From Phlyctochytrium arcticum (Eukaryota; Chytridiomycota; Chytridiomycetes; Chytridiales; Chytridiaceae), in contig JAHLKI010000048.1 of NCBI GenBank assembly GCA_025602905.1, forward strand, positions 1 through 64,000: a DNA stretch of 64,000 nucleotides. The letters run 5' to 3'. The number at the start of each line of letters is the position of its first letter. The stretch's first letter is position 1. Shown piece by piece: positions 1,915 through 56,132 of the stretch. The notes under the pieces were generated by a model. It was given only the letters and a program-made list of their open reading frames with translations. It was not told the DNA's origin and made no database searches. Position numbers and translations under genes: made by a program.

Positions 1915-3872
1915 CTAATGTCTGCCTCGCCAGTCGATAAAAACCGGCTTGACATGTTTTTCCCATTGCTGCTGCCACGTCTCTCGCCGAAACTTTTGCG
2001 TCCCTTCTCGCAATCGCTGGAGTTGGTTGTCGTCATTCAGTAACTCCTGTAAAAGATACCAGGTCAGTATTGGGTGGGCACACAGATGCAAAAATGGGGA
2101 AATGTACAGTTAATTGCTGGAACAGCTCGGATGCCGTCACGAATACACGGCCATTGACTCCATCCTCTACCAATTCCTTTAAACTATTCAAAAAAAAAAT
2201 GAATTCAATTAGTTCAAGCCTAGATGAAAACACTTTGTGGGGAAAAGAGAGTTGAAGGTATCTTACCATCCATATCCCACTGCACAGACAGGTAACTCGC
2301 AGCCAAACATATCTACAATTTTCATGGGGAGGTCGACGCCCGACGACGACACATGTAACGAAATGCCTAAATCGGCCGCTCCTAAAAATCATTTCAGGAT
2401 GAGATAAGGAGCGATGCATGGCGCGTAGATCAAGTGTTTTACCGAGTAATGTGGGGTAATCGGCCGCTTCCAACCACACCGTCTTAATCTCAACACTCCG
2501 CCAATTAATTTTCCTAATTTTCTTCTTGTACATTTCCTTAAGAGGACCCTGCCCCGTAATAATCACCAACACACGCGGTGAACTCCCCGCAGCATGTTCA
2601 TCCATGATTCCACTCAAATCCCGGCGTTGGGTTTCTTCCTTTTCGTACATCCGGAGTGCATCCAGTAATAAGTCGAATTCTTCGTCTTCGGTCCAGCTGG
2701 TACTGCTCACGATGATTTTTGGGCGGGGGCCTTTGTAGCGGATGACTCCCGTGGGTGAGATTGTGGTTACGATGTTGTCAAAGTATTTGGGGTCTTCTCC
2801 GAGATAGATGGCCTCGGGGCCGGCAAAGTCGTACTTTGTGAATAACTAAGAAACGGGCAAGGCGTTGGCATGTGCGTTTGTATCATTGCGTACACTACTG
2901 GCAAAAGACTTACGTGATGTATCTCCTCCATGGTGGCTTTTCGAAAGTGCGCCGGAGCTCGGTCGTGCATGGTCACAATCGGACCTCTATAGTGATGAAT
3001 TAGACCTGGGGCTCTTCTATCCTGCAAAGACGATTGAGATGATTTACTTGACTTCCCAATCTTTGACCAATTGTCTAGCCATGGCATGACTGACACACAC
3101 ATGAGCTTCCGCATGTCGCCCGAACGCCAATTCATACCTAATTCAGCATACAGAATTAGATCGGATTCCATTTACGGCAGGAACAAAGGGTCTTACCGGA
3201 ATGCAGCCTCTACGATCCGGCTCTCGTTTCCCAGATTCAAGGCCATGATAGAGTATCCGTAATTGTGCCAATCAATGATTAAACGGGTGCCGACCACTAG
3301 ACGGACAATTTGGGCAATCAACAGGGTTGGAACTGCTGGTGGATTCTATAGATTGTTTCGATTAGTTTGATTCCAAGTCTAACCAGCATGATGCTTTAAC
3401 AGACCTGAACCAAGATGTGGCCGCATGGCGGAATATCAACCGTGAGCAACCAAAGCAAATTCAGAAATTGAAAAAGTGTCCTCCATATCGCTCTGACAAG
3501 ATAAACAAAGCGCGATCCGCTTGATGGTAATTTCGTCGGACTTTTGATGTAGTGGACAGTCACTTTCCCCTCTTTCTGGTACTCGGCAAGTTGAGGCAGC
3601 AATTTCGAACCGCCGTAGCCGACAGCATGCACATCATAGCCTTCGTGGGCTAACGATATGGCGTGGTATTGGGTTCGCGGAGAGCGGCCGAGATCGCCGA
3701 GGACGAGGACCAGGACTCGTTTGTGTTTATTGTGGGTTCGACTGAGGCGGAGGTAGAGGACTGGGAGGGCGGCTATGAGGATGAAAAGACTAGCGCAATA
3801 AAGCGCTGCTGAAGCGATCGCCATTTCGCGCGGTGCATGCAGGATTAGCAGAATCTTGGAGGCCAAGGTCAT
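1915..3872 (-). CDS. ALG1: ALG1 chitobiosyldiphosphodolichol beta-mannosyltransferase
   Basis: Adds the first mannose to GlcNAc2-PP-dolichol on the cytosolic face of the ER, an essential N-glycosylation step. The N-terminus has a hydrophobic anchor, then [20 protein letters not shown], the family's donor-binding opening. Later exons give [37 protein letters not shown] and the GT-B C-terminal half with [19 protein letters not shown] and [20 protein letters not shown]. The last exon ends [10 protein letters not shown] at a TAG at 1915-1917. At least six introns interrupt the gene. The first in-frame ATG is at 3872; another at 3824 would shorten the anchor. It runs convergent to DUS2. Confidence 0.9.
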
Positions 3873-4015
3873 GAATTTTCCCAAGGTAAACAAAACACAT
3901 CAACCATTTTAGAAACATGAATTGAATGATAACAGTAAGTTACAGTGAGGGATGAGAACCACATATGAATCACAACCCAAAAAAATATATATCTCAGGCT
4001 TTAGCAGGTTTTTTC

Positions 4016-4780
4016 CTACTTTCGCTTACTCTTGCTGCCGGTACTTGCCCCCGCCGTTCCCGGTCCTCCACTCTTATCCGACCCCGTCGTCGGTTTTCCA
4101 GCCGCCCGCCGAGCGCCTCCCTGGGTACTAGGTGGTTCATATAGACTGGTGGTGCTGGAGAAGCCTGAGCCGACTTTGGAGGATTTGCTGGTGGTGCCGC
4201 CTCCGCTGCCTCCCATCCCGACTGTACTAGCTTCACCGCGGAGTCCGGCTTTGGGTTTGGGTCGTTGTCGGGAGGCCACTGTATTGTGAGAAAAAACACG
4301 CGGGGATTAGGACTTCTTTTGAGGATGCATTTTGCTTGCGGTTGATGTACTTACCAGAGAATTTCAGTTTTTCGCCTGCTGGCTGGTCCAACAGACTCAG
4401 ATAGGTGGGGGTAGTTTCATCTCCCTCATCTAGAGTATTTCCAACAACGTTAGGAGATGCAATCACGAAGGAAAGAGCCCATTACGTACCGCCAATGACT
4501 TTGACAAGGATATAGGTTCCTCGAGCATCCAAAAACTTTTTAGCGTACTCTTTGTTTTTGCTGACGAGGTCCACGACCTCACCAGTTTCGGAGGCCAGAT
4601 CAACGTTTTCGAGGAGATGGCCGAACCCACAGGATGACTTGAGGTGCTGGAGTAGCACGCAGGCTAATGTATTTGGGTTGGCCAGTCGTTCCTCGCCGGC
4701 TGATGGGGGTGTTACTCCAATGGCCTACAATTTTCGGGCGAACAGCTCGTACCTCCGTACTTTACAGTGATGAAGGCCAT
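4016..4780 (-). CDS. CXorf65-like small protein, four exons
   Basis: Spliced product of about 165 residues. Exon 1 reads MAFITVKYG; a 53-nt intron (4700-4752) follows. Exon 2 reads NPNTLACVLLQHLKSSCG and then LASETGEVVDLVSKNKEYAK and KFLDARGTYILVKV. This order (short beta-start with VKYG, 'LLxHL', 'D..ETG', 'A.KFL.AR.TY.L.KV') matches the human CXorf65 family as I remember it. The C-terminal tail is low-complexity Ser/Gly/Lys (GSKSKRK end). The family has no established biochemical role; it looks like a ubiquitin-like fold. I associate its distribution with organisms that have cilia, which would suit a flagellated fungus, but that is inference. Confidence 0.65.
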
Positions 4781-4859
4781 GGCCGGGTCAAGCCGTGAAT
4801 ACAGACCAATCAATCACTGTCGGTGATAATTAAAGTCGTTCTATGTATCGTCATCAACT

Positions 4860-5110
4860 TTTATGCTGGGGGCAAACTTTTGTACTGGCCTTTCATCTGA
4901 TGCAACGAAACGCGTCGGAGAATAGCTCCATGACTGTGCCGCCACACGTACACGCATTCATTTTCGAGGCATACTCCCATTTTTCCTCGTTGTAGTTCTG
5001 CTTCTTCTCTCTTTCCAAAATCGTCCGCGCCCATCCATTTTTCCTCCGGAAGATGTCTGGGCCAAGAAGTGCCTCCGCTCGGGGTTCGAAAAAAAAAAGT
5101 GTCTGGGCCA
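4860..5110. repeat. Diverged copy of the palindrome-rich dispersed repeat
   Basis: The stretch around 5026-5065 (CGCGCCCATCCATTTTTCC followed by a short hairpin and TGTCTGGGCCA) matches the repeat at 36130-36190 and the reverse complement of 38230-38265. The left part (4970-5025) is weakly similar to the hairpin-rich body of those copies but its hairpins are mostly lost. Open frames here are small and mutually overlapping, so no gene is called. Confidence 0.5.
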
Positions 5111-5119
5111 AACCTCAAC

Positions 5120-5625
5120 AAAAACTCAGGTCTTCACCCAATGGGCAGAGTCCGTCCGATGTTTTGCCCGCCAGCGTCAAATCTGGAACCATCTCCTGCT
5201 GGAGTGGAGCGGGTAACGCCAATAGTGGCGCGCATCGTCAAGACGCTGGGTGATGCCCAGCGTCCGGCTTGAGTCCATAAGTCCTCAAAGGGGTTTTCTT
5301 CCGGCCAACCTTGCACGGACCCTTTACCATCGCCCATAAAGCTTGCCTTGGGTGGAGCTGCAGGCGCCCAAGGCGGCGAACCCATTTCTGGGTCAGAGGC
5401 GCGGTCCCATCCCTGCGTGTGCTAGCGTGCAGTGGATGAGCCTGTTATGCTGGCCCTCTGTGGCATTCCAATCCCGAAATAAACTGGCCAGTAACATCCG
5501 GCACCGGGAATCGAACCCGGGACAACTGGACCGGCAAGTGCTTTCGCACATGCACCAAGTCACAGCACGATGAATGTACTGCTGAAAGTTACGCTTATAT
5601 AGGTAGCCTCGGCCTCCGACACACA
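5120..5625 (-). repeat. tRNA-headed SINE-like element, copy A
   Basis: Minus-strand element. Its head, about 5490-5580, contains GGTTCGATTCCCGGTGCCGG, a pol III B-box and T-arm as in tRNA. The body ends near 5136-5190 with a block shared with copies B and C (forward strand: CAATGGGCAGAGTCC, then CCAGCGTCAAATCTGGAAC). Upstream of the head the forward strand reads TATATAGGT and a short ACACAG-type repeat. The body differs from B and C by indels. Confidence 0.7.
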
Positions 5626-5949
5626 GACACACAGACACACACTGATGTTAAGAATTCACTGCAACCATCGGTCAGGATTGATTGGTTAGACTTGTGGTTA
5701 GACTTTTCTCCACAAGTCATGACACATTAACGTCCCCCACATTAATCTGAAACATGCAATCTTCCTCTTATATAACTTGTGCTATGATGCCCCGCCTGTT
5801 TACTTTACACTTGACCCAATACACAATACACTACTCAACCATAATCTTTAACATGGCACACCTACACACTGCCGAGAGAAAAAAAAGAAAGTCCCCCAAA
5901 AAACCGCTGCTCACCAGCAGTAGACAATGAATGCATGAACAAATAGTAT
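5626..5949. other. Non-coding spacer between SINE-like copies A and B
   Basis: AT-richer DNA with no supported open frame. It begins with a short (ACACAG)n run at about 5622-5645. Confidence 0.5.
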
Positions 5950-6430
5950 CCCGAAAATAAAAAGCAAAACAGATAGCCTTCACCCATTGGGCAGAGTCCA
6001 TCACATATGCTCTCCAGCGTCAAATCTGGAACAGAGCGTGCGCTACACAAGCGACTTTCCTGCGCTGGGGCCGGCGACTCATTGTCGACAGCGACCCTTC
6101 TCCAGCGACTTTCGAGTGCCACACATATTGTGTGGTCCCACTCACAGAGGGATTCCTCCGACCCGTCGGCCGGTCCACTCTCCCGGGGCCCGGAGCAACT
6201 CTTATGCTCGTGACCCCAAACTGCTACACGCCCTCTTGGCGCAGCCTTCCCAGAGGCGAGGAACATACTCGCGGCTGAGGCACACCAATCCCGGAAAACT
6301 CATCCGGCACCAGGAATCGAACCCGGGACACGCGAACTGGGCAGCGCAACTACGGCGCCTGCACCATTCGGTTGCGATAATTTAATTGTGTCAAGATGCG
6401 CTTAGATAGGTGACCGTGGCTCCCGCTGGC
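5950..6430 (-). repeat. tRNA-headed SINE-like element, copy B
   Basis: Same architecture as copies A and C. The B-box sequence GGTTCGATTCCTGGTGCC lies on the minus strand at about 6305-6325. The 3' block (CATTGGGCAGAGTCC and CCAGCGTCAAATCTGGAAC on the forward strand) is at 5980-6030. The left edge reads CCCGAAAATAAAAAGCAAAA, shared with copy C. The open frames that cross it are chance frames in GC-rich repeat DNA. Confidence 0.75.
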
Positions 6431-6435
6431 GGCGG

Positions 6436-6565
6436 GTGGTTGTCTGTGGTTGTCTGTGGTTGTCTGTGGTTGTCTGTGGTTGTCTGTGGTTGTCTGTGGT
6501 TGTCTGTGGCTGTCTGTGGTTGTCTGTGGTTGTCTGTGGTTGTCTGTGGTTGTCTGTGGTTGTCT
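6436..6565. repeat. 10-bp minisatellite, about 13 copies
   Basis: Tandem array of the unit GTGGTTGTCT with one C variant near 6510. The 10-bp period is open in several frames on both strands, which produces spurious repetitive open frames. It lies between the 5' end of SINE copy B and the 3' end of copy C, so it may be an expanded SINE tail. Confidence 0.95.
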
Positions 6566-6634
6566 CCGTCCGAGGAGAACCAGAAGATTTGGCCCGATTT
6601 ACTGTATTGATATGTGCAACATGTCTGTCAGTAC

Positions 6635-7065
6635 TACCCCGAAAATAAGAAGCAAAATAGATGGCCTTTACCCATTGGGCAGAGTCCATCCCATATAGTG
6701 CGCTCTCCAGCGTCAAATCTGGAACATCCACGTTGTGGAATGGAGCGTGCGCTGTATATATACAAGCGTCTTTGTGGTTGCGCCCGGGCCGGCGACTATG
6801 TCTGCAGCAGCCCGTTCCTGGCGTTTGCGCTGGGGGCGGCGGACTATGTCTCGGCCGCACTGTCTCCAGCGGAGTAGGATATTTTCTCCCGGCCGGGGAT
6901 CCACCCAAACTGCTACACGCCCACTTAGTGGAGCGGAGCCTTCTCAGGGCTATGCCTCTGAGGCAAACCAATCCCAGAAAATTCATTCGGCACCGGGAAT
7001 CGAACCCGGGACACCCGAACTGGGCAGGCAACAGCGCCTGCGCCAACAGCTGCGCTAATTAGGGT
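6635..7065 (-). repeat. tRNA-headed SINE-like element, copy C
   Basis: The best preserved head of the three: on the minus strand TAGCGCAGCTGTTGG is a good A-box, followed about 50 bases on by GGTTCGATTCCCGGTGCC as B-box. The body then runs leftwards to the shared CCAGATTTGACGCTGG and GGACTCTGCCCAATGGGTAA block at 6670-6725 and an A/T-rich end. It is not a functional tRNA: the sequence continues for hundreds of bases past the T-arm. Its 5' end lies about 130 bp upstream of the RPC3 start codon. Confidence 0.8.
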
Positions 7066-34916: not shown

Positions 34917-36896
34917 CTACTTTTTGCTGTTCTTGGACTCTTTCTCAGCCTTGGAACTCTCCTTCTCAACCTGCTTCTTTCCCTCCCCAATCAACTTTTT
35001 GGCCTTTTCCGCTTTGGCCTGCAACACCTGTGCAATCTCATCGTACGTTTCTTGGGCCAGAGCTTTGGCGTCATCGCCCTTTTCTTGGGATAGGCGGACC
35101 AGGATACTCATGTCGGGGACCTTGTCCAGTGCTTCTTTTCCGCCGGGGACGACTTTGACCCAGTCTTGGAGACTGTCGAGACCCTTTTCGAGAGTGGGAG
35201 AAACGGCGTCCTTGGTGTCTTGGGCAGTGGAAGCGAGGAATTCCTTGAATTTGGCGATTTTGGCTTTTTGGTCGTCCTTGCTGGATTCGGCAATATCCTT
35301 GACTTGGTCGAAAATCTTGCTGAAACTGGAGGAGCCCCCAGTGGCAACGGCAGCAGCACTAGCCATCAACCCTGACGAATTCTTGTTGAGCAAGTCACGG
35401 AGTTCGGGGACTTTGTCCAAGTAAGGTTTGGCTTGCTCGAGACCCTTGTTCCATGCATCGGAACCTTGCTTCTTGGTCAATTCCTTGATTTGCTCCGTCT
35501 TGGATTTGATCAATTCACTCGCTTGCTTGAGTGTTTCGGGGGTCAGGCCCTTCTTGAACATCTCATTCATCTACAAACATCTCGTATAAGTTCCAGTGCA
35601 TATGTTTGGGTAATACGAAATGCATACCTGCTTGGACACATCATCCAATGTCTTTTTGGCTTCGGGACCGGCCTTGGCAGCCAACTCTTGGAATTCTTGG
35701 TACCCACCACCCAGCTTCTTGGCTACTCCAGGAAACTTGTCTTCCAACTCACTAAACGCCGTCTTGCTCGCGTCCTTGGCCACCTGTAATCATTGACAAC
35801 TCGACAGTTAGTTCATGCACTCAAAGTCCACTCTCATCCGATCTGTCACATCCATCCCCTCATCCATCCCCCTCATCCATCCAACCATCAAAACCATCCG
35901 AGTCAGCGAGTAAACGCATGCTCCTCCCCCTCGCTACCGCTCGGGGTCGTCGTATTGTTGCACCATGTGCGAACCCGCATTGATTTTGCTCCGCAAAATC
36001 GTGTTCCTCGCTGTTTGCAGAGCTTCGTCAGTATCCTTTTTCCCTCCTCGCTTCGCTCGCAAGAATTGCCTCGCTTCGCTCGGCGTCCTGCTCGCTGCCG
36101 CTCGCACTCGATTTTGCTGCGCAAAATCATCCGCGCCCATCCATTTTTCCTTGCCCTCGCTTCGCTCGGGCGCGGAAAAATGTCTGGCCCTCCTCGCCCT
36201 ACGGGCTCGTCGGGATCGCTCCCGCTCGCCTTTTTTCCTTTGGAAAAAAGTCTCACTCCGCGATAGTACCCACCTTCTTCAGCTCAGTCCCGCGACGCTT
36301 GAGAACATCGACAATCTTTGTTCCAGTAACCATGTCGAGACCAGACTTGTCACTTTGAATAATCTTCTTGACCTCATCATAAGCTTCCGTAACGATACGA
36401 TCAAAGTCGTCACCATGTTCATCCCGAATCTCATCCAAAGAATCAAAGGTAGCGTCGATATAAGAAGAAGCACCGGGGATGACAGAAGCATAAGATTTGG
36501 TGAGAGAGCGTAACGACTCGAGAGCCTCATGAGCATTGTCTGGTGTTTTCTCTTGTAAAGTCTTTTTGGCCTTGACTGTAATGTCCTTGTAGTAGTCCTT
36601 TGCGGTGGAAGCCGTGTCGACAAACGTCTTTGCGCCGGAAAAGTAGTAGTATCCGTAGGCTGTATGTAGAAATCACAAGTTAGGGATCTGGGAGATGTGT
36701 AGTAATACCACTACTCAGAATACTTACCACCGGCAAGGACGGCCGCACCGCCGGCAGCTCCGGCCAGAGCATGGGATGAGGCGGTAGAAGGTGGTGGTGG
36801 AGTAGAATGTTGAAAGCGTTGGGAGATGCGGATGCCGCCGACGCGACGGGCAGTCATGATACGGCGGGAGGAGATCATTCTGGTAGTAGCAATCAT
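34917..36896 (-). CDS. Mitochondrial coiled-coil (apolipoprotein-like) protein, conserved in fungi
   Basis: Four exons: 36896-36729, about 36659-36274, 35783-35627 and 35570-34917. The N-terminus MIATTRMISSRRIMTARRVG is Arg/Ser/Thr-rich without acids, a mitochondrial presequence, followed by the Ala/Gly segment SHALAGAAGGAAVLAGG and AYGYYYFSG, a possible membrane turn. The rest is almost entirely amphipathic helix rich in Lys, Asp, Glu and Ala (for example DEIRDEHGDDFDRIVTEAYD, KPYLDKVPELRDLLNK). I know similar unnamed proteins from many fungi; no function is established. The second intron (35784-36273, 490 bp) is far longer than the others because it contains a palindrome-rich repeat. Confidence 0.75.
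35870..36255 (-). mobile_element. Palindrome-rich dispersed repeat inside an intron
   Basis: Reverse-orientation copy of the repeat at 38215-38570. It carries perfect 8-bp-stem hairpins with 3-base loops at 35982-36000 and 36110-36128 (GATTTTGC-nnn-GCAAAATC), a CATTTTTCC...GGAAAAATG arm pair at about 36138-36180 with a second hairpin in its loop, and TTTTTTCC-ttt-GGAAAAAA at about 36232-36250. Between them are repeated CTCGCTTCGCTCG motifs. It sits wholly within intron 2 of the coiled-coil gene and should be removed by splicing. Confidence 0.75.
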
Positions 36897-38214: not shown

Positions 38215-38570
38215 CAAGGGCCGAGGGTGGCCCAGACATTTTTCCGAAGGAAAAATGGATGGGCGCTAAGATTTTGCGAAGCAAAATCGAATGCGAGCGG
38301 CAGCGAGGAGGGAAAAAGGATACTGACGAAGCTCCAAACAAAGGAGCGAGGAACAGGATTTTGCGGAGCAAAATCATTACGGGGTTCACATATGGTGCAA
38401 CAATACGACGACCCCGAGCGTAGCGAGGGGGAAGAGCATGCGTTTACACACAGACTCGATTGGTTTTGATGGATGGATGAGGGTGATGGCTACGTTCGGG
38501 GGAGGAGCATGCGTTTACACACAGCCTCGATTGGTTTTGATGGATGGATGAGGGTGATGGATGAAGGGGA
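38215..38570 (+). mobile_element. Palindrome-rich dispersed repeat, intergenic copy
   Basis: Contains perfect hairpins CATTTTTCC-gaa-GGAAAAATG (38237-38257), GATTTTGC-gaa-GCAAAATC (38270-38288) and GATTTTGC-gga-GCAAAATC (38357-38375), and CCCCGAGCGTAGCGAGGGG (38412-38430). Its right part is a direct duplication: the segment from GAGCATGCGTTTACACACAG to TGGATGGATGAGGGTGATGG occurs at about 38434-38489 and again at 38506-38561. The same sequence order, inverted, is found at 35870-36255. It has no coding capacity. Confidence 0.8.
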
Positions 38571-50877: not shown

Positions 50878-51417
50878 TTTTGAGGCTCCAAATTTCGAAG
50901 TTTCGGGCAGACTCGGCAGAGTGTCACTGTGTCACGGTTTTGTATTGGGGCTTGGTCGTTGAATTGCTCTGATTTGAAACTTTCCCACAGGGCCGCGGCC
51001 ACAGACAGACTTACGATCTAATCTACGAGGCTGAGCGAGAGCCGCTGCTTTTGAAAACGCACAACCTACCCTTTTCCGAAAATCCCATGTTGGCAAACCA
51101 CCGAAGCTCCCCTCGAGTGCAGTCAAGACAAACCGCGATGAGGAAGATCCCGCTTGGGACACATTACCAGACAAGAGAACCTCATTTTGGGTACGTACGG
51201 AGAGTCTCAAATCCATGTGGGAGGGCTGAATCAACATTCCACTAGCAACGGAAGGAGGGCTCTGTTCGAGAGTCTTTGAGTCCTGCACCCCCAGGGCGGT
51301 ATGACTTCGAGAGTTCCATCGGTCTTCAACTTCGTTTGTTGATACTCGTTCGACCTGAGTCCCGTCGTGCATTCACCTATTCAACGAGCCACACCTAGTG
51401 GAGGTAATGCTCGAGCG
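50878..51417. other. Intergenic with an unassigned minus-strand frame
   Basis: A 146-residue minus frame (50932-51372) starts with ATG but is low in recognisable structure and ends in a Pro/Arg-rich tail; I do not call it a gene. Confidence 0.3.
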
Positions 51418-51705
51418 ATGACCCCGTTTTGGAACCAATGCTGCTATGAATACCCCAACCAGAGTACAGTATCTGCGAACAATGCCCATGTTGAGGACAA
51501 TGCGGATTCACTCATTGGCGACTTCAGCCAGGATCTTCTGGGATTAGGACTTGGAAATGAAGCATTGGATCTGGAACTTGAGAAGATGGAGCAGGAGCGT
51601 GAACGTCTGGAGCACCTGAAGGAGATGAAAAGAGTCAAGCTTCTTCGTCTTGCTGAGTTACAACGGAAGGTTGAAAAGGCCCGCTTGGAGTTTGGAGCGG
51701 TATAA
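51418..51705 (+). CDS. Hypothetical coiled-coil protein
   Basis: From ATG at 51418 the frame encodes an acidic segment (DNADSLIGDFSQDLLGLGLG) and then a strong amphipathic helix DLELEKMEQERERLEHLKEM and KRVKLLRLAELQRKVEKARL. The stop overlaps a possible GT donor, so more exons may follow (see the frame at 52050-52380). Not recognised. Confidence 0.35.
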   Translation: MTPFWNQCCYEYPNQSTVSANNAHVEDNADSLIGDFSQDLLGLGLGNEALDLELEKMEQERERLEHLKEMKRVKLLRLAELQRKVEKARLEFGAV

Positions 51706-51939
51706 TTGGACAACAAACAAAATTCCCAAAATTCCCACGTTCCGGCTACGGCTGCGCACCGTCAACCCTTTCATGACATTCGTAACCCTGCTTGCGCCGG
51801 ACCCACGCCAGACTACCCGCGGGTCGGCCATGACGGCGACTCCGAGAACGACCCCTCTCGCTTCTCAACATGAACTGGATAGCATTCAGGAAGATCGAAA
51901 GGCCGAGTTGCGGTACAAACAAGGAGATCAAGGGACAAA

Positions 51940-52449
51940 TCCGTCAAATTTGCGATAGTATTGTTCCGGAGATTCGATTCAAAGGAAAAGGGGGGAGAAC
52001 GATAAGCATACATTGATGGACTTTGAGCCTTTGAAGAGCAGGAGCTTGACGTTTATGACAAGGACCCCCGCTTTCAAAAGTTGGTCTTGTTCGCTTTGCG
52101 GAGCTTCCTACACCCGGACGGGAACGGGAAAGCATATGAGATGTATAGGCAGCGCTTTGACGCCTGGCGTAGCTTTGACGACTTTCTTGAGGACCTCTAC
52201 TCGATTCCTGAAGGCAAACTCCGATGCGGCTATTGTAGCCGAATGGGAAGCATCGTGTCAGGGCTCTTGGAATGGAAATCTGAATTGGACAGGTTATGGG
52301 AAACCGTTAGTGTGCATATGAATCGGCACATTGTGACAGCTTGCACTGTCAGGTGTAGTTCGGCCATCTGGAACTGCCCCAACCCCGCTAATCCCCAGCC
52401 TCAATGCGGACTTGAGTTAGGATACGTAGAACCGAAACCGCACTCTTAG
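51940..52449 (+). other. Unrecognised coding-like fragment
   Basis: At 52055-52370 a plus-strand frame reads RDPRFQKLVLFALRSFLHPD and GKAYEMYRQRFDAWRSFDDF, ending GKLRCGYCSRMGSIVSGLLE. A short piece EIKGQIRQICDSIVPEIRFK precedes it in another frame. This looks like a real but interrupted protein, perhaps belonging to the same mobile island as the Fanzor-like gene that follows on the other strand. Confidence 0.3.
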
Positions 52450-53604
52450 TAATAGTCATCTGTAATCGATAATTAGCTGAGACCGCATTGCGGAGTTTTG
52501 TACTTAGTTTAGGCAGTAGATCTCTGTTCATTTTATTATAAAAAAGGGCCCCTATCCTCGCCCCAGAGTGGGAGGATAACCCGGACTTCAATACAGTTCT
52601 CTTTGCCCCTGTGAATACTGTCTGTCCCTGTTACCTGTCAAATTTCATCAGAAGGATTGTGTAATTCGGCGTCAGCGGCTAATATTCGACACTTGAAGCA
52701 GACTTTGGATGTGCGATGCTCGTCCACCATCACAACCGTCATGCCCTTATTCAGAGCCTTGATGATTGTTTTGGTCGGTGCTCCACGTCGACCTTTGGTG
52801 GCTGCGAACTGACCTGCCCCGAAAGCAATCACCAATCTCATTCCGCGGTTTATTGCTGTTTTCGGGACCCTTGCTTGATCCTCAAAGCTATGCTGTGCAG
52901 GGCCTTCTGCTAGCGGATATAGGTGTAGAATCGCCAGCCGGCTTCTTGGCTATGAGCTTCACGGAGGGTGTCGTAATGGAAGAGGGTCTGCCGTGAGTAC
53001 GCTTGGAATACTTGGAGAGAGGCTATCTTGCCGCTTCCCAAATTTGTCTGGATGTTTTTGACACTGTCGGTGATATGCTGTGCCCTGAGCCTACTCGTCC
53101 GGTTGTAGCCCGCAAGATCTCTCCACTCGGCTCCAGAAACGTGGGCCAATGGCGGCCATCCTGAGAAACTTGTGTCTTGGTCAATGTCAAGCAATCTACT
53201 ATGCACGGGATACCGAAGGTGCATTTTTCTCTGATCCTTTCGAAGGACACGTCCTTCTGCTTTGTGAAGCTCCATTTTAATGATTGAATTCCCGCCTCGA
53301 TGATCTTTAACGTATCCTTCAAGGAATGCTGAATGTTTTCCATCTTCCGACCACCAGACGACTCCATATATAGTACTTCATTTTAAAATCCCATCTTTTC
53401 ACGCACGGTGACACTTCCTTCCGGGTCTACCATCCCAATCAATTCCCAATCAGCTTCATTGATGACTTTCTTCTGGTTCAACAACTCGACATAAAGCGTG
53501 GCGATCAGTTCAAACATCCGGATGATTTGTGCCCTTCGGGACCATGACATCGGTATCGCTGCGTCCCTCAGCTCGATCGCTTCCAATGGCGGCCATCCTG
53601 ACAA
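52390..53604 (-). pseudogene. Fanzor/TnpB-like (OMEGA) nuclease gene, damaged
   Basis: The minus strand carries, in order, SGAEWRDLAGYNRTSRLRAQ (53070-53134), FQAYSRQTLFHYDTLREAHS, AGWRFYTYIR, QKALHSIALRIKQGSRK in another frame, then RLVIAFGAGQFAATKGRRGA, PTKTIIKALNKGMTVVMVDE and HRTSKVCFKC (52688-52720). The 'S.AEW..L.G', 'R.Y..RQKAL', 'FG.G.F....RG..P.K...K.L' and 'VDE.RTSK.C..C' series is that of eukaryotic TnpB homologues (Fanzor): RuvC subdomains and the first half of the zinc ribbon. The frame stops at 52638 after one CxxC; a further frame (about 52520) reads YNKMNRDLLP, possibly the NRD end of the RuvC site. No intact RuvC-I Asp-Pro-Gly is seen. Frame changes and a duplication make this a pseudogene. 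Confidence 0.65.
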
Positions 53605-53824
53605 ACTTGTGTCTTAGTCAATGCCAAGCAATCTACTATGCACTGGATACCGAAGGTGCATTTTTCTCTCATCCTTTCGAAGGAAACGTCCTTCTGCTTG
53701 GTGAAGCTCAATTTTAAAGATTGAATTCCCGCCTCGATGATCTTCACTGTATCCTTCAAGGAATGCTGAATGTTTTCCGATTTCGGACCACCAGACGACT
53801 TCATATATATCACTTCTGATTTGA
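53147..53824. repeat. Tandem duplication, two units of about 242 bp
   Basis: Unit 1 (53147-53388) and unit 2 (53583-53824) run in the same direction and differ by roughly one base in fifteen by eye. They start AATGGCGGCCATCCTGA and end CCATATATAGTACTTC or TCATATATATCACTTC. About 195 bp of different sequence lie between. Both units encode, on the minus strand, ENIQHSLKDT-KIIEAGIQSL in one frame and LRKD-RKMHLRYPVHSRLL in another. Confidence 0.9.
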
Positions 53825-56132
53825 TACCGGACACAGTCCGTAGTCATTGGAATGTAAAACGGTCGCCGCTTTGGATGCAATTGGGTACTCACACCAAACA
53901 AATTGCATCAGACCCGTGTGGATGGCAAGTCCTTCGAAGTAGGGCACAACCTTTTGCTCCCAAGGTGTCCGTTCATGCGGATCGAGGTTATTCTTCGCCA
54001 AACTCCGGATGCACTTTTTGGAAAAAGTCGCTCAGTGCATATCGAACTGCCCTCCAGAATACAAGCTCCTCATCTGGGCAATCCTTTGGCTTCTGTGTCC
54101 ACAACCACTCCAGCCACTCATTAGTGTACTCTTCTTTGAGGAGAGCCTCCTGGATCAAGCCAAGTACTGTCGGGAACCTTTTCAGGGAAGCCAAGTTTTT
54201 GCCATCAGCCATGTTTTGTTTGAGCTCGGATTGAATGTCTGCAGGGAGATGTTCCGACTTTGTGTTGCTCAAAGCAACGTAGACAACTTTGGAAACCGCG
54301 TCCAAATCCTTGCGCTTCACTTTCGGCTTGTGCGGAGTGGGACCCTCTGAAGAAGTACTTAGGATTGAGTATGTACTGTCTTTGAGGTTGACCTTGATTG
54401 GGCGTCTGAATCATGATATCGTTACTTATCAAACCAGGGCGCATCAATGTGGTTCATCTGGGCCACATACCATTATTCCACTGCATTCTTCTGGAGGATC
54501 GAGCCCTTCTGCATCTGATTCGGCTGATTCCCCATCGCTGTCGATGACTTCAGACTCAACATCTTTCAATACTTGCAATTTCGCTCTCTGAACTTGCGGT
54601 ATTAGGGGAAGGGGCTATCGGCAGGACAGCGATATGGCATCAACATACCTTCTTTGAATTCCCGCGGACGTTGTGTTCTTTGCGAGCAAGCTTTTGATAC
54701 AGAGTAGCTTCTTTTTCTGCCCATTGGTAGTACACGTCGAAAAAATGGTCATTTTTCTATATAAAGATCAAAGAACACATCTTAGTAATAATATCTTGAC
54801 CGGCGGGTGTACGACTTTGAGCCGCAGGCATGAGGCCGCCGCGCCAGATAGGGCGGCTATTCGCCATCGGCAAGTGCGATATTTTGAGCGAACGCATTTT
54901 CCCTAACCGACTCTCCCAAAGTATCCCGCAGAGCAAGTAAGCAAGGCAGGAGCACTACGTCGACTGGCAGATGCCAACTGAGGACGTGGGATGTGGCTAG
55001 CTTGTGTATCTCAAAGAGCTACTTGAGGCGGTTGCCTCCGCGCCAGTTAGGGCGGCTATTTGCAATGAGACGACCTAAACTGCAGAGAGCTTTTTGGCGG
55101 ACAGTAGCAATCCATGTAATCGGATCAACAGAATCGTCCCAAACACCTTTCGGGGAGAAGACACTGCAAGGAGCATGGCAGGAGCACCAGCAGAATGGGA
55201 TATGGCCGAACAGTTCAACAGGCGGCAGAAGAGGAAATGGACCTGTCGAATGGAGGGGATTCCTTGCAACTACTGTGCACTGCAAAGCAGAAAGAATGGC
55301 GTAAGTTTTGGGGACCGCAATCTCGCAATCTCGCAACCGCCAATGGGCCTCCGGGCAGGATCTCATTGCCATCAATGTTGGAAGCCAGCCGCCCTGTGTA
55401 AGAATTGTCTGATTGTCTATACAACCATGGGAACATGTCGTCTCTTTGCAATCATTATGTATGAGCAAACGCATTTTCCCTAACCGACTCTCCCAAGGCA
55501 TCCCGCGGAGCAAGTAAAGCAATGCAGGAGCACTACGTCGACTGGCAGTTGCCAACGGAGGACGTGGGATGTGGTTGTTCTTCTCGAGTGTAGTCGAGCA
55601 AAAACAAAGCGGCAGACTGCGACGCGTAGACCTTCGAGTTTTGTTGCCCACTATACACTGACCTGTATTTTATTGTACAGCTGCTTGCATTTCGTTCGTC
55701 GGACAGCATAGGATATGCTTTCCTTCAACTGCGACAGCGCACGTACAAAGTCTCCTTTGACGGTCTCGGCCTCGAATGCGGTGAATGGTGCATCGTCAAT
55801 TCTAGCTTTGGCATAAGCAATGGGCTCGTAGTTGTCCACGTCGGTCTGAACCCAATAGTCTGCGTTGTGGAGTTGAGTTAAATTTAAGTGTTTTGCTGCC
55901 TACACGGACAAAGGGTGGTCTTACCAACCGCTTTAAGGTGTTTAAGCGCTGATGGAGAAATGTCATTTCGCTTCCTCTTGGTCGTCGGTAAGATCGTTCG
56001 GTTGGCTAGAGAAATGCACGCGCGTTGGCTGGTTGAAAAGGAAATATGAACCCCCAGGTCGGAGTTTCGCGTCGAAACTACTAAATAGGCCAGATAAAAC
56101 TTTGAGATGTGTGGGAGGCATAAGTAGTGCAT
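53825..56132 (-). CDS. Unknown multi-exon protein, intron invaded by repeats
   Basis: Exons, 5' to 3': about 56132-55925 (ending KRKRNDISPSALKHLKAV), 55845-55665 (DYWVQTDVDNYEPIAYAKAR and RALSQLKESISYAVRRTKCK), 54760-54655 (HFFDVYYQWAEKEATLYQKL), 54595-54473 (RAKLQVLKDVESEVIDSDGE), 54405-53990 (RKDLDAVSKVVYVALSNTKS, then CPDEELVFWRAVRYALSDFF) and 53970-53860 (ERTPWEQKVVPYFEGLAIHT). Together they read as one coherent, partly acidic, helical protein. I do not recognise a family. The long intron at about 54765-55660 contains duplicated repeat sequence. It may be a host gene or the accessory part of the mobile unit next to it; the 3' end is uncertain. Confidence 0.4.
54825..55585. repeat. Duplicated sequence blocks within the intron
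   Basis: The block CGCATTTTCCCTAACCGACT ... GAGGACGTGGGATGTGG occurs at about 54893-54994 and again at 55469-55573. The short block CGCGCCAG(A/T)TAGGGCGGCTATT occurs at about 54840 and 55039. Between them a plus-strand frame (55094-55483) has several Cys pairs (CRMEGIPCNYC, HCHQCWKPAALCKNC); it may be a chance frame or a small zinc-binding protein of the inserted element. Confidence 0.7.

What the first reader, a model, noticed from the sequence alone, without database searches (positions are those of the whole stretch)
52390..53604. Damaged Fanzor/TnpB-like (OMEGA) nuclease in a fungal genome
The C-terminal series RLVIAFGAGQFAATKGRRGA ... VVMVDE/HRTSKVCFKC is the RuvC-to-zinc-ribbon signature of eukaryotic TnpB homologues; Spizellomyces punctatus, a chytrid, supplied a characterised RNA-guided Fanzor. 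Here the gene is interrupted by a duplication and frame changes, so it records past mobility of an RNA-guided element. The 3' side, where the guide RNA of such elements lies, includes a hairpin at 52553-52578 (TATCCTC ... GAGGATA with inner CCA-gag-TGG).
Basis: partly seen in the sequence, partly recalled or inferred. Interest (0 to 1): 0.75.

Follow-up and report, generated by a model that had tools for sequence, protein, structure and literature searches.

The report
Broken Fanzor fragment beside retrotransposon LTR
This is a dead, roughly 500-base scrap of a Fanzor gene (a known family of RNA-guided DNA-cutting enzymes) in a chytrid fungus, stranded between a leftover retrotransposon end and an unrelated duplicated sequence, so it is an ordinary genomic fossil and the hairpin beside it is not its guide RNA.

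Summary
Window 52643-53145 (-) is a 503-bp fragment of a Fanzor1-type gene, 86-92% identical in DNA to two paralogues in the same genome (Phlyctochytrium arcticum, by protein records on contigs of the same length). It has an in-frame stop and out-of-frame insertions. It keeps the relocated RuvC glutamate and first CxxC (VDEHRTSKVCFKC) and lacks the DPG aspartate, second CxxC, final RD and N-terminal half. Longer copies at C28 and C1 keep the whole C-terminal series; a profile including both matches the solved Spizellomyces Fanzor (8gkh) at E=3.2e-9. The 234-bp duplication (53146-53379 / 53583-53816) is real but is not Fanzor sequence; it abuts the fragment. The hairpin (52553-52578) is real but lies inside a 311-bp LTR (52332-52642) of a Ty3/Gypsy chromodomain retrotransposon, is kept in the nine LTR copies aligned, and the LTR runs on the opposite strand, so it is not Fanzor's guide RNA. 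Beyond the LTR lies part of another retroelement-like ORF. The LTR shows no target-site duplication, which fits ectopic LTR recombination or deletion. No function is expected for the fragment.

The parts
52643..53145 (-). 503-bp Fanzor1 gene fragment (pseudogene): part of the RuvC region and the first half of the zinc ribbon
   Evidence: 92% to C28 over 52674-53145 and 86% to C12 over 52643-53145; alignment and frames
52638..52949 (-). 103-aa stop-to-stop ORF carrying FGAGQF...VDEHRTSKVCFKC; its first part is out of frame with the gene upstream
52332..52642 (+). solo LTR of a Ty3/Gypsy chromodomain retrotransposon, sense strand +
   Evidence: ten other copies of this repeat in the genome; paired copies around gag-pol-chromo on C3; ends and flanks
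   Evidence: seven outer pairs kept in 9 of 9 aligned LTR copies, one with a change on both sides
51319..52331 (+). fragment of another retroelement-like ORF (two aligned pieces, 91% and 86% to C25/C14 copies), cut off at the LTR; 'gag-like' is inferred from a zinc knuckle in the next ORF of those copies
53146..53379 (-). duplicate copy A, non-Fanzor, abutting the fragment
   Evidence: no Fanzor match
53583..53816 (-). duplicate copy B, in continuous sequence

Best explanation
A Fanzor1 gene of Phlyctochytrium arcticum was reduced to a 503-bp pseudogene fragment. Shown: the fragment ends at the first base of a Ty3/Gypsy LTR on its 3' side, inside what is coding sequence in the paralogues (between the two halves of the zinc ribbon), and at the first base of a local 234-bp duplicate on its 5' side; it carries a stop and frameshifting insertions; a piece of a different retroelement-like ORF follows the LTR. 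Inferred: LTR-LTR ectopic recombination (or insertion plus deletion) removed the rest of the 3' part, a non-homologous join made the 5' end, and point damage accumulated. Inferred from characterised Fanzors: intact relatives would be RNA-guided RuvC-type DNA nucleases of mobile elements. The fragment cannot act so: it lacks two of the three catalytic residues, half of the zinc site and the N-terminal half. No guide RNA of its own was found.
For: DNA similarity to C28 and C12 paralogues stops at 53145 and at 52643; exact LTR and duplication borders; damage; profile match to SpuFz1 E=3.2e-9; DPG / TSxxCxxC / CxxC / RD series in C28 and C1; relocated glutamate described for Fanzors (PMC10711439 passages); the hairpin is an LTR feature; LTR without 5-bp duplication in the window while C2, C19 and C3 copies have one.
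Against: The fragment alone scores below Pfam's cut-off and its only PDB hits are a dehydratase at E=1.2. The N-terminal half of the C28 gene matched no Fanzor structure. The structure prediction failed. The LTR on C1 also shows no target-site duplication, so its absence in the window is weak evidence for recombination.
Confidence: 0.92

Rival explanations
1. One reading: one degraded Fanzor element, internally duplicated, with its guide-RNA hairpin on the 3' side.
For: Peptide, duplication and hairpin all exist at the stated places, and known Fanzor guide RNAs lie 3' of the gene (PMC10432273 section 7).
Against: The duplication has no Fanzor similarity; the hairpin is inside an LTR present at ten other places, in an element with gag-pol-chromo, oriented against the gene.
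Confidence: 0.03
2. Same fragment, different history: the Fanzor piece and the retroelement-like piece were already joined, and a retrotransposon later inserted exactly at the join and collapsed to a solo LTR.
For: Solo LTRs are common in this genome.
Against: It needs insertion exactly at the join and loss of the 5-bp duplication; both flanks are cut exactly at the LTR ends.
Confidence: 0.1
3. The peptide belongs to an unrelated zinc-ribbon family and only resembles Fanzor.
For: The fragment alone scores below Pfam's cut-off and hits only a dehydratase at E=1.2 in the PDB.
Against: Longer paralogues hit SpuFz1, pass Pfam's TNB cut-off at C28 and C1 and carry the DPG / TSxxCxxC / CxxC / RD series.
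Confidence: 0.02

Closest known systems
SpuFz1 / Spu-1 element of Spizellomyces punctatus (Fanzor1, 8gkh)
   Same: Profile of the relatives matches it at E=3.2e-9; same order of DPG aspartate, glutamate before TSxxCxxC, second CxxC and RD in the C28 and C1 copies (motif from PMC3627910 and PMC10711439 passages). Partial Fz genes and Ty3/Gypsy insertions in Fz loci are described there too (PMC10432273 section 7).
   Different: The window copy is a fragment of about 500 bp without DPG, second CxxC or RD and without a guide RNA; SpuFz1 is a single ORF between inverted repeats (PMC10432273 section 7), while the relatives here are split over open frames and showed no inverted repeats in the one locus tested, C2. 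The linker between the CxxC pairs is 74-108 residues in the four proteins measured.
Fanzor-like genes C28 (DFS34DRAFT_696937) and C1 (DFS34DRAFT_30418) of the same genome
   Same: C28 is 92% identical in DNA to the fragment over 52674-53145.
   Different: They have long open frames with the complete C-terminal motif series; whether the full genes are functional was not tested.
Ty3/Gypsy chromodomain LTR retrotransposon (C3 element, L040)
   Same: The window LTR is 83-84% identical to its two LTRs.
   Different: Only a solo LTR remains in the window; C3 has two LTRs around gag, protease, RT, RNase H, integrase and chromodomain.

Membership tests
Fanzor (window fragment) | Relocated RuvC glutamate six residues before CxxC, within [TS][TS]xxCxxC | tested here: met
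   VDEHRTSKVCFKC in ORF 52638-52949; feature taken from PMC10711439 and PMC3627910 passages
Fanzor (window fragment) | RuvC-I aspartate in a DPG motif | tested here: not met
   Similarity starts downstream of it, at C28 ORF residue 139; so it is filed as a pseudogene fragment derived from a Fanzor gene, not as a working Fanzor
Fanzor (window fragment) | Second CxxC and final RD | tested here: not met
   The sequence ends at the LTR before them
Fanzor (window fragment) | Sequence match to a characterised Fanzor | tested here: inconclusive
   None for the fragment alone; present for its relatives
Fanzor (window fragment) | Guide RNA encoded 3' of the gene | tested here: not met
   The proposed hairpin is an LTR feature
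Fanzor (C28 and C1 paralogues) | D (DPG) ... TSxxCxxC ... CxxC ... RD | tested here: met
   2 of 2
Fanzor1 rather than Fanzor2 (paralogues) | TDG motif of the WED domain (PMC10711439 passages) | tested here: inconclusive
   By eye TDG in C1, C7, two C13 loci and C2 proteins, ADG in C28; no tree was built; the only Fanzor chain among 3 PDB hits was SpuFz1, a Fanzor1
Fanzor (paralogues) | Carried by a mobile element with defined ends | tested here: inconclusive
   Four loci share a 3' end of similarity; no inverted repeats found around the C2 copy and its 5' border was not reached
Fanzor (paralogues) | RNA-guided DNA cleavage | not testable with these tools
   Needs bench work
LTR retrotransposon, Ty3/Gypsy (52332-52642) | Paired LTRs around gag-pol with chromodomain integrase; 5-bp target-site duplication | tested here: met
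   Met by the C3 element (its duplication needs one LTR edge moved by one base); the window itself holds one LTR and shows no duplication

The most novel reading that the evidence does not exclude
The Phlyctochytrium / Borealophlyctis group of Fanzor1-type proteins, from which this fragment derives, carries a 74-108 residue, acid-rich insert between the two halves of its zinc ribbon, possibly a partner-binding insert comparable in role to the RuvC insertion of the Parasitella Fanzor. The window fossil itself would only witness this group's past spread.
Probability: 0.15. Interest if true: 0.35.

Novelty: new member of a known kind. Interest (0 to 1): 0.14.

Why it matters
It matters little by itself: Fanzor1 in a chytrid, partial copies and Ty3/Gypsy insertions in Fanzor loci are already described for Spizellomyces punctatus (PMC10432273 section 7). 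The useful outcome is that the apparent guide-RNA hairpin is a retrotransposon LTR feature, and that the same genome holds two Fanzor-like genes with long open frames (C28, C1), deposited as hypothetical proteins, that are better objects of study.

Tried and rejected
AlphaFold on the C28 protein with a 4-sequence alignment gave mean pLDDT 31.9, so no fold search was run. PDB search with the 103-aa fragment gave only a dehydratase at E=1.2. NCBIfam hits were all far below their cut-offs. The N-terminal half of the C28 gene had no Pfam hit above cut-off and no useful PDB hit. Three searches of the large protein database returned five different proteins in all, P0001-P0005, too few for a deep alignment; P0002, found, was not returned.

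Element ends: in the C2 copy the self-comparison showed no inverted repeat around the Fanzor gene, and C2/C13 similarity runs on to the edge of the fetched sequence. Similarity among C2, C7, C13 and C15 stops at a common 3' point just after a conserved block of about 40 nt; a 22-base pattern from it occurs at four places, all of them at those genes, and 0 times in the reversed control, so no ghost copies were seen. The block can also be read as protein in C7 and C15, so it may be a last exon rather than RNA. The sequence around and after the C28 stop found only itself in the genome, although the direct comparison shows a weak 67-nt match to C12 (76%). A first blast script read the wrong files and returned nothing and was redone.

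The idea that the duplication is a second Fanzor part was rejected: C-terminal Fanzor queries hit this contig only at 52680-53155 and the N-terminal query not at all. Literature, open-access library only: 'Fanzor' + 'chytrid' 1 paper; four terms on Fanzor and Spizellomyces 2 papers; 'Fanzor' 82 papers, 30 listed; 'Phlyctochytrium arcticum' + 'transpos' 0; + 'genome' 3 listings, none opened; five terms on the catalytic glutamate 1 paper. Supplements could not be read, so these copies may well be listed in published survey tables.

Full report
What is there. It gives a sub-threshold hit to Pfam Cas12f1-like_TNB, E=2.1e-4, 21.8 bits against a cut-off of 26.3. The own-genome search returned 10 matches including itself; the best others are C28 (65%, E=4.8e-28, in a 412-aa open frame) and C12 (60%). 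The genome is 31.5 Mb in 91 contigs. The C28 protein is recorded as DFS34DRAFT_696937 of Phlyctochytrium arcticum on a contig of the same length, 374,593 bases, and the C1 protein as DFS34DRAFT_30418 on a contig of 2,971,897 bases.

Family. The C-terminal half of the C28 gene hits the solved Spizellomyces punctatus Fanzor (8gkh) at E=5.1e-5. A profile of four relatives (C28, C1, one Borealophlyctis protein, one unnamed) hits it at E=3.2e-9; the two other hits of that search are LaTranC at E=0.65 and 0.79. Pfam's TNB cut-off is passed by C28 and C1 (27.1 and 31.0 bits, cut-off 26.3) and not by the six other ORFs of the same call, three of which are N-terminal halves and three C-terminal pieces cut before the second CxxC. 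C28 and C1 carry an aspartate in DPG, TSxxCxxC 204-208 residues later, a second CxxC and RD, which fits the motif of Bao and Jurka (PMC3627910, passages). The glutamate six residues before the first CxxC is the relocated RuvC residue described for Fanzors and their closest TnpBs (PMC10711439, passages). For SpuFz1 the catalytic residues are D383, E541 and D606 (PMC11423790, passages); that E541 corresponds to the glutamate of DEHRTS here is my inference from the alignment. The TDG motif given for Fanzor1 is visible by eye in the C1, C7, two C13 and C2 proteins, and reads ADG in C28. No tree was built, so Fanzor1 rather than Fanzor2 is likely and not proven.

Extent and damage. DNA similarity covers 52674-53145 (92% to C28) and 52643-53145 (86% to C12). 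In a three-way alignment the fragment is identical to C28 at 446 of 489 ungapped positions and to C12 at 433 of 486. It has an in-frame stop, and 4-nt and 1-nt insertions against both. Missing are the N-terminal half, the DPG aspartate, the second CxxC and the RD. C12 is itself broken.

The duplication. The direct repeat 53146-53379 / 53583-53816 (92%, spacing 437) begins at the first base after the Fanzor similarity ends. Copy B runs on in other sequence while copy A is cut at the Fanzor join. A genome search with 53146-54600 found only itself and a relative of about 100 bp on C30 (84%), which spans the boundary at 53583. Searches with C-terminal Fanzor proteins touch this contig only between 52680 and 53155, and the N-terminal query does not touch it. 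So the duplication is local, non-Fanzor sequence. An ORF further up (53988-54410) has three weak relatives (25-32%) and no Pfam hit.

The 3' side and the hairpin. 52332-52642 is a repeat. Of 13 matches to 52280-52660, one is the window itself, ten are other full or partial copies of this repeat, and two match only the sequence beyond it. On C3 two copies bracket about 5.6 kb that encode Retrotrans_gag, retroviral protease, RT, RNase H, integrase and a chromodomain (the integrase hit is just under its cut-off). On the plus strand the window copy reads TGTGACAG...CTGTCAAA, and three copies (C12, C24 and the C3 3' LTR) are preceded by a purine-rich tract. It is therefore an LTR in plus orientation, opposite to the Fanzor fragment. 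Its seven outer pairs are kept in 9 of 9 copies aligned (one pair as T-G in one copy), and one pair shows a change on both sides, A-T to G-C; the innermost A-T pair is lost in 6 of 9. Two truncated copies, a second one on C24 and the one on C6, do not reach the hairpin and were left out of that alignment (9 of the 11 copies held). Alone, the stretch folds no better than shuffles (z=-0.67). It lies just downstream of a TATA-like run, so it may sit at the start of the retroelement transcript (inference).

History. Five-base target-site duplications are visible for the C2 LTR (GGGAC), the C19 LTR (AATTC) and, with one LTR edge moved by a base, the C3 element (GCTCA). None is visible for the C1 LTR or for the window (TGAAA against ATGTG). 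The other copies cannot be tested because a boundary is internal or truncated. In the window one flank is Fanzor and the other is part of a different retroelement-like ORF, 86-91% to two nearly identical copies on C25 and C14. That ORF has no Pfam hit itself, and the ORF after it has a zinc knuckle, so 'gag-like' is inferred. Both flanks are cut exactly at the LTR ends, as ectopic recombination between two LTR copies would produce; insertion plus deletion remains possible.

The wider family. C-terminal Fanzor similarity was found at ten clear loci (C1, C28, C7, C2, two on C13, C15, C12, C6 and the window) and three weak ones (C14, C2:594 kb, C32), plus a short piece 0.7 kb from the C1 gene. 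The N-terminal query gave 17 matches at about 11 places. The tool states that such counts are lower bounds. The C2 and one C13 copy are 98% identical over 4.9 kb, so some spread is recent. In the four proteins with both CxxC pairs the linker is 74-108 residues, 21-31% D+E.

What is known. In Spizellomyces punctatus 42 loci with full-length (19) or partial Fz genes are described, with Gypsy/Ty3 inserted near or in some, and a guide RNA from the 3' inverted repeat (PMC10432273, sections 5 and 7 read). A Fanzor with a roughly 100-residue RuvC insertion is described from Parasitella (PMC11423790, passages).

Verdict. Ordinary: a broken Fanzor1-type fragment in a patch of transposon debris. The most exciting element of the finding, an adjacent guide-RNA hairpin, is a retrotransposon LTR.

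Noticed in passing
L009 (C28:106500-114500) 2147-4810 and L011 (C1:1596000-1604000) 2926-5698: Two Fanzor-like genes with long open frames and the full C-terminal motif series, deposited as hypothetical proteins; better objects of study than the window fragment.
   Followed up: partly
P0001, L011 (C1), P0002 (Borealophlyctis nickersoniae), P0003: A 74-108 residue linker, 21-31% D+E, between the two CxxC pairs of the zinc ribbon in the four proteins that have both pairs.
   Followed up: partly
L069 3554-3596 (C2), L012 2654-2696 (C7), L015 4545-4584 (C13), L014 3210-3253 (C15): A block of about 40 nt, 87-100% alike, at a common 3' end of similarity of four Fanzor copies and found nowhere else in the genome as a pattern; last exon or guide-RNA region.
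   Followed up: partly
L069 3319-3552 (C2) and L015 2365-2603 (C13): A repeat of about 235 bp, 97% alike, interrupts the 3' part of the C2 Fanzor copy and lies in opposite orientation within the C13 one.
   Followed up: no
L042 (C25:169500-173000) and L043 (C14:757500-761000): Two retroelement-like stretches 99.94% identical over 3.4 kb, so a recent copy event.
   Followed up: no
window 54885-54996 and 55462-55574; 35864-36061 and 38292-38489; 5944-7060: Further direct and inverted repeats in the window, 77-93% alike.
   Followed up: no
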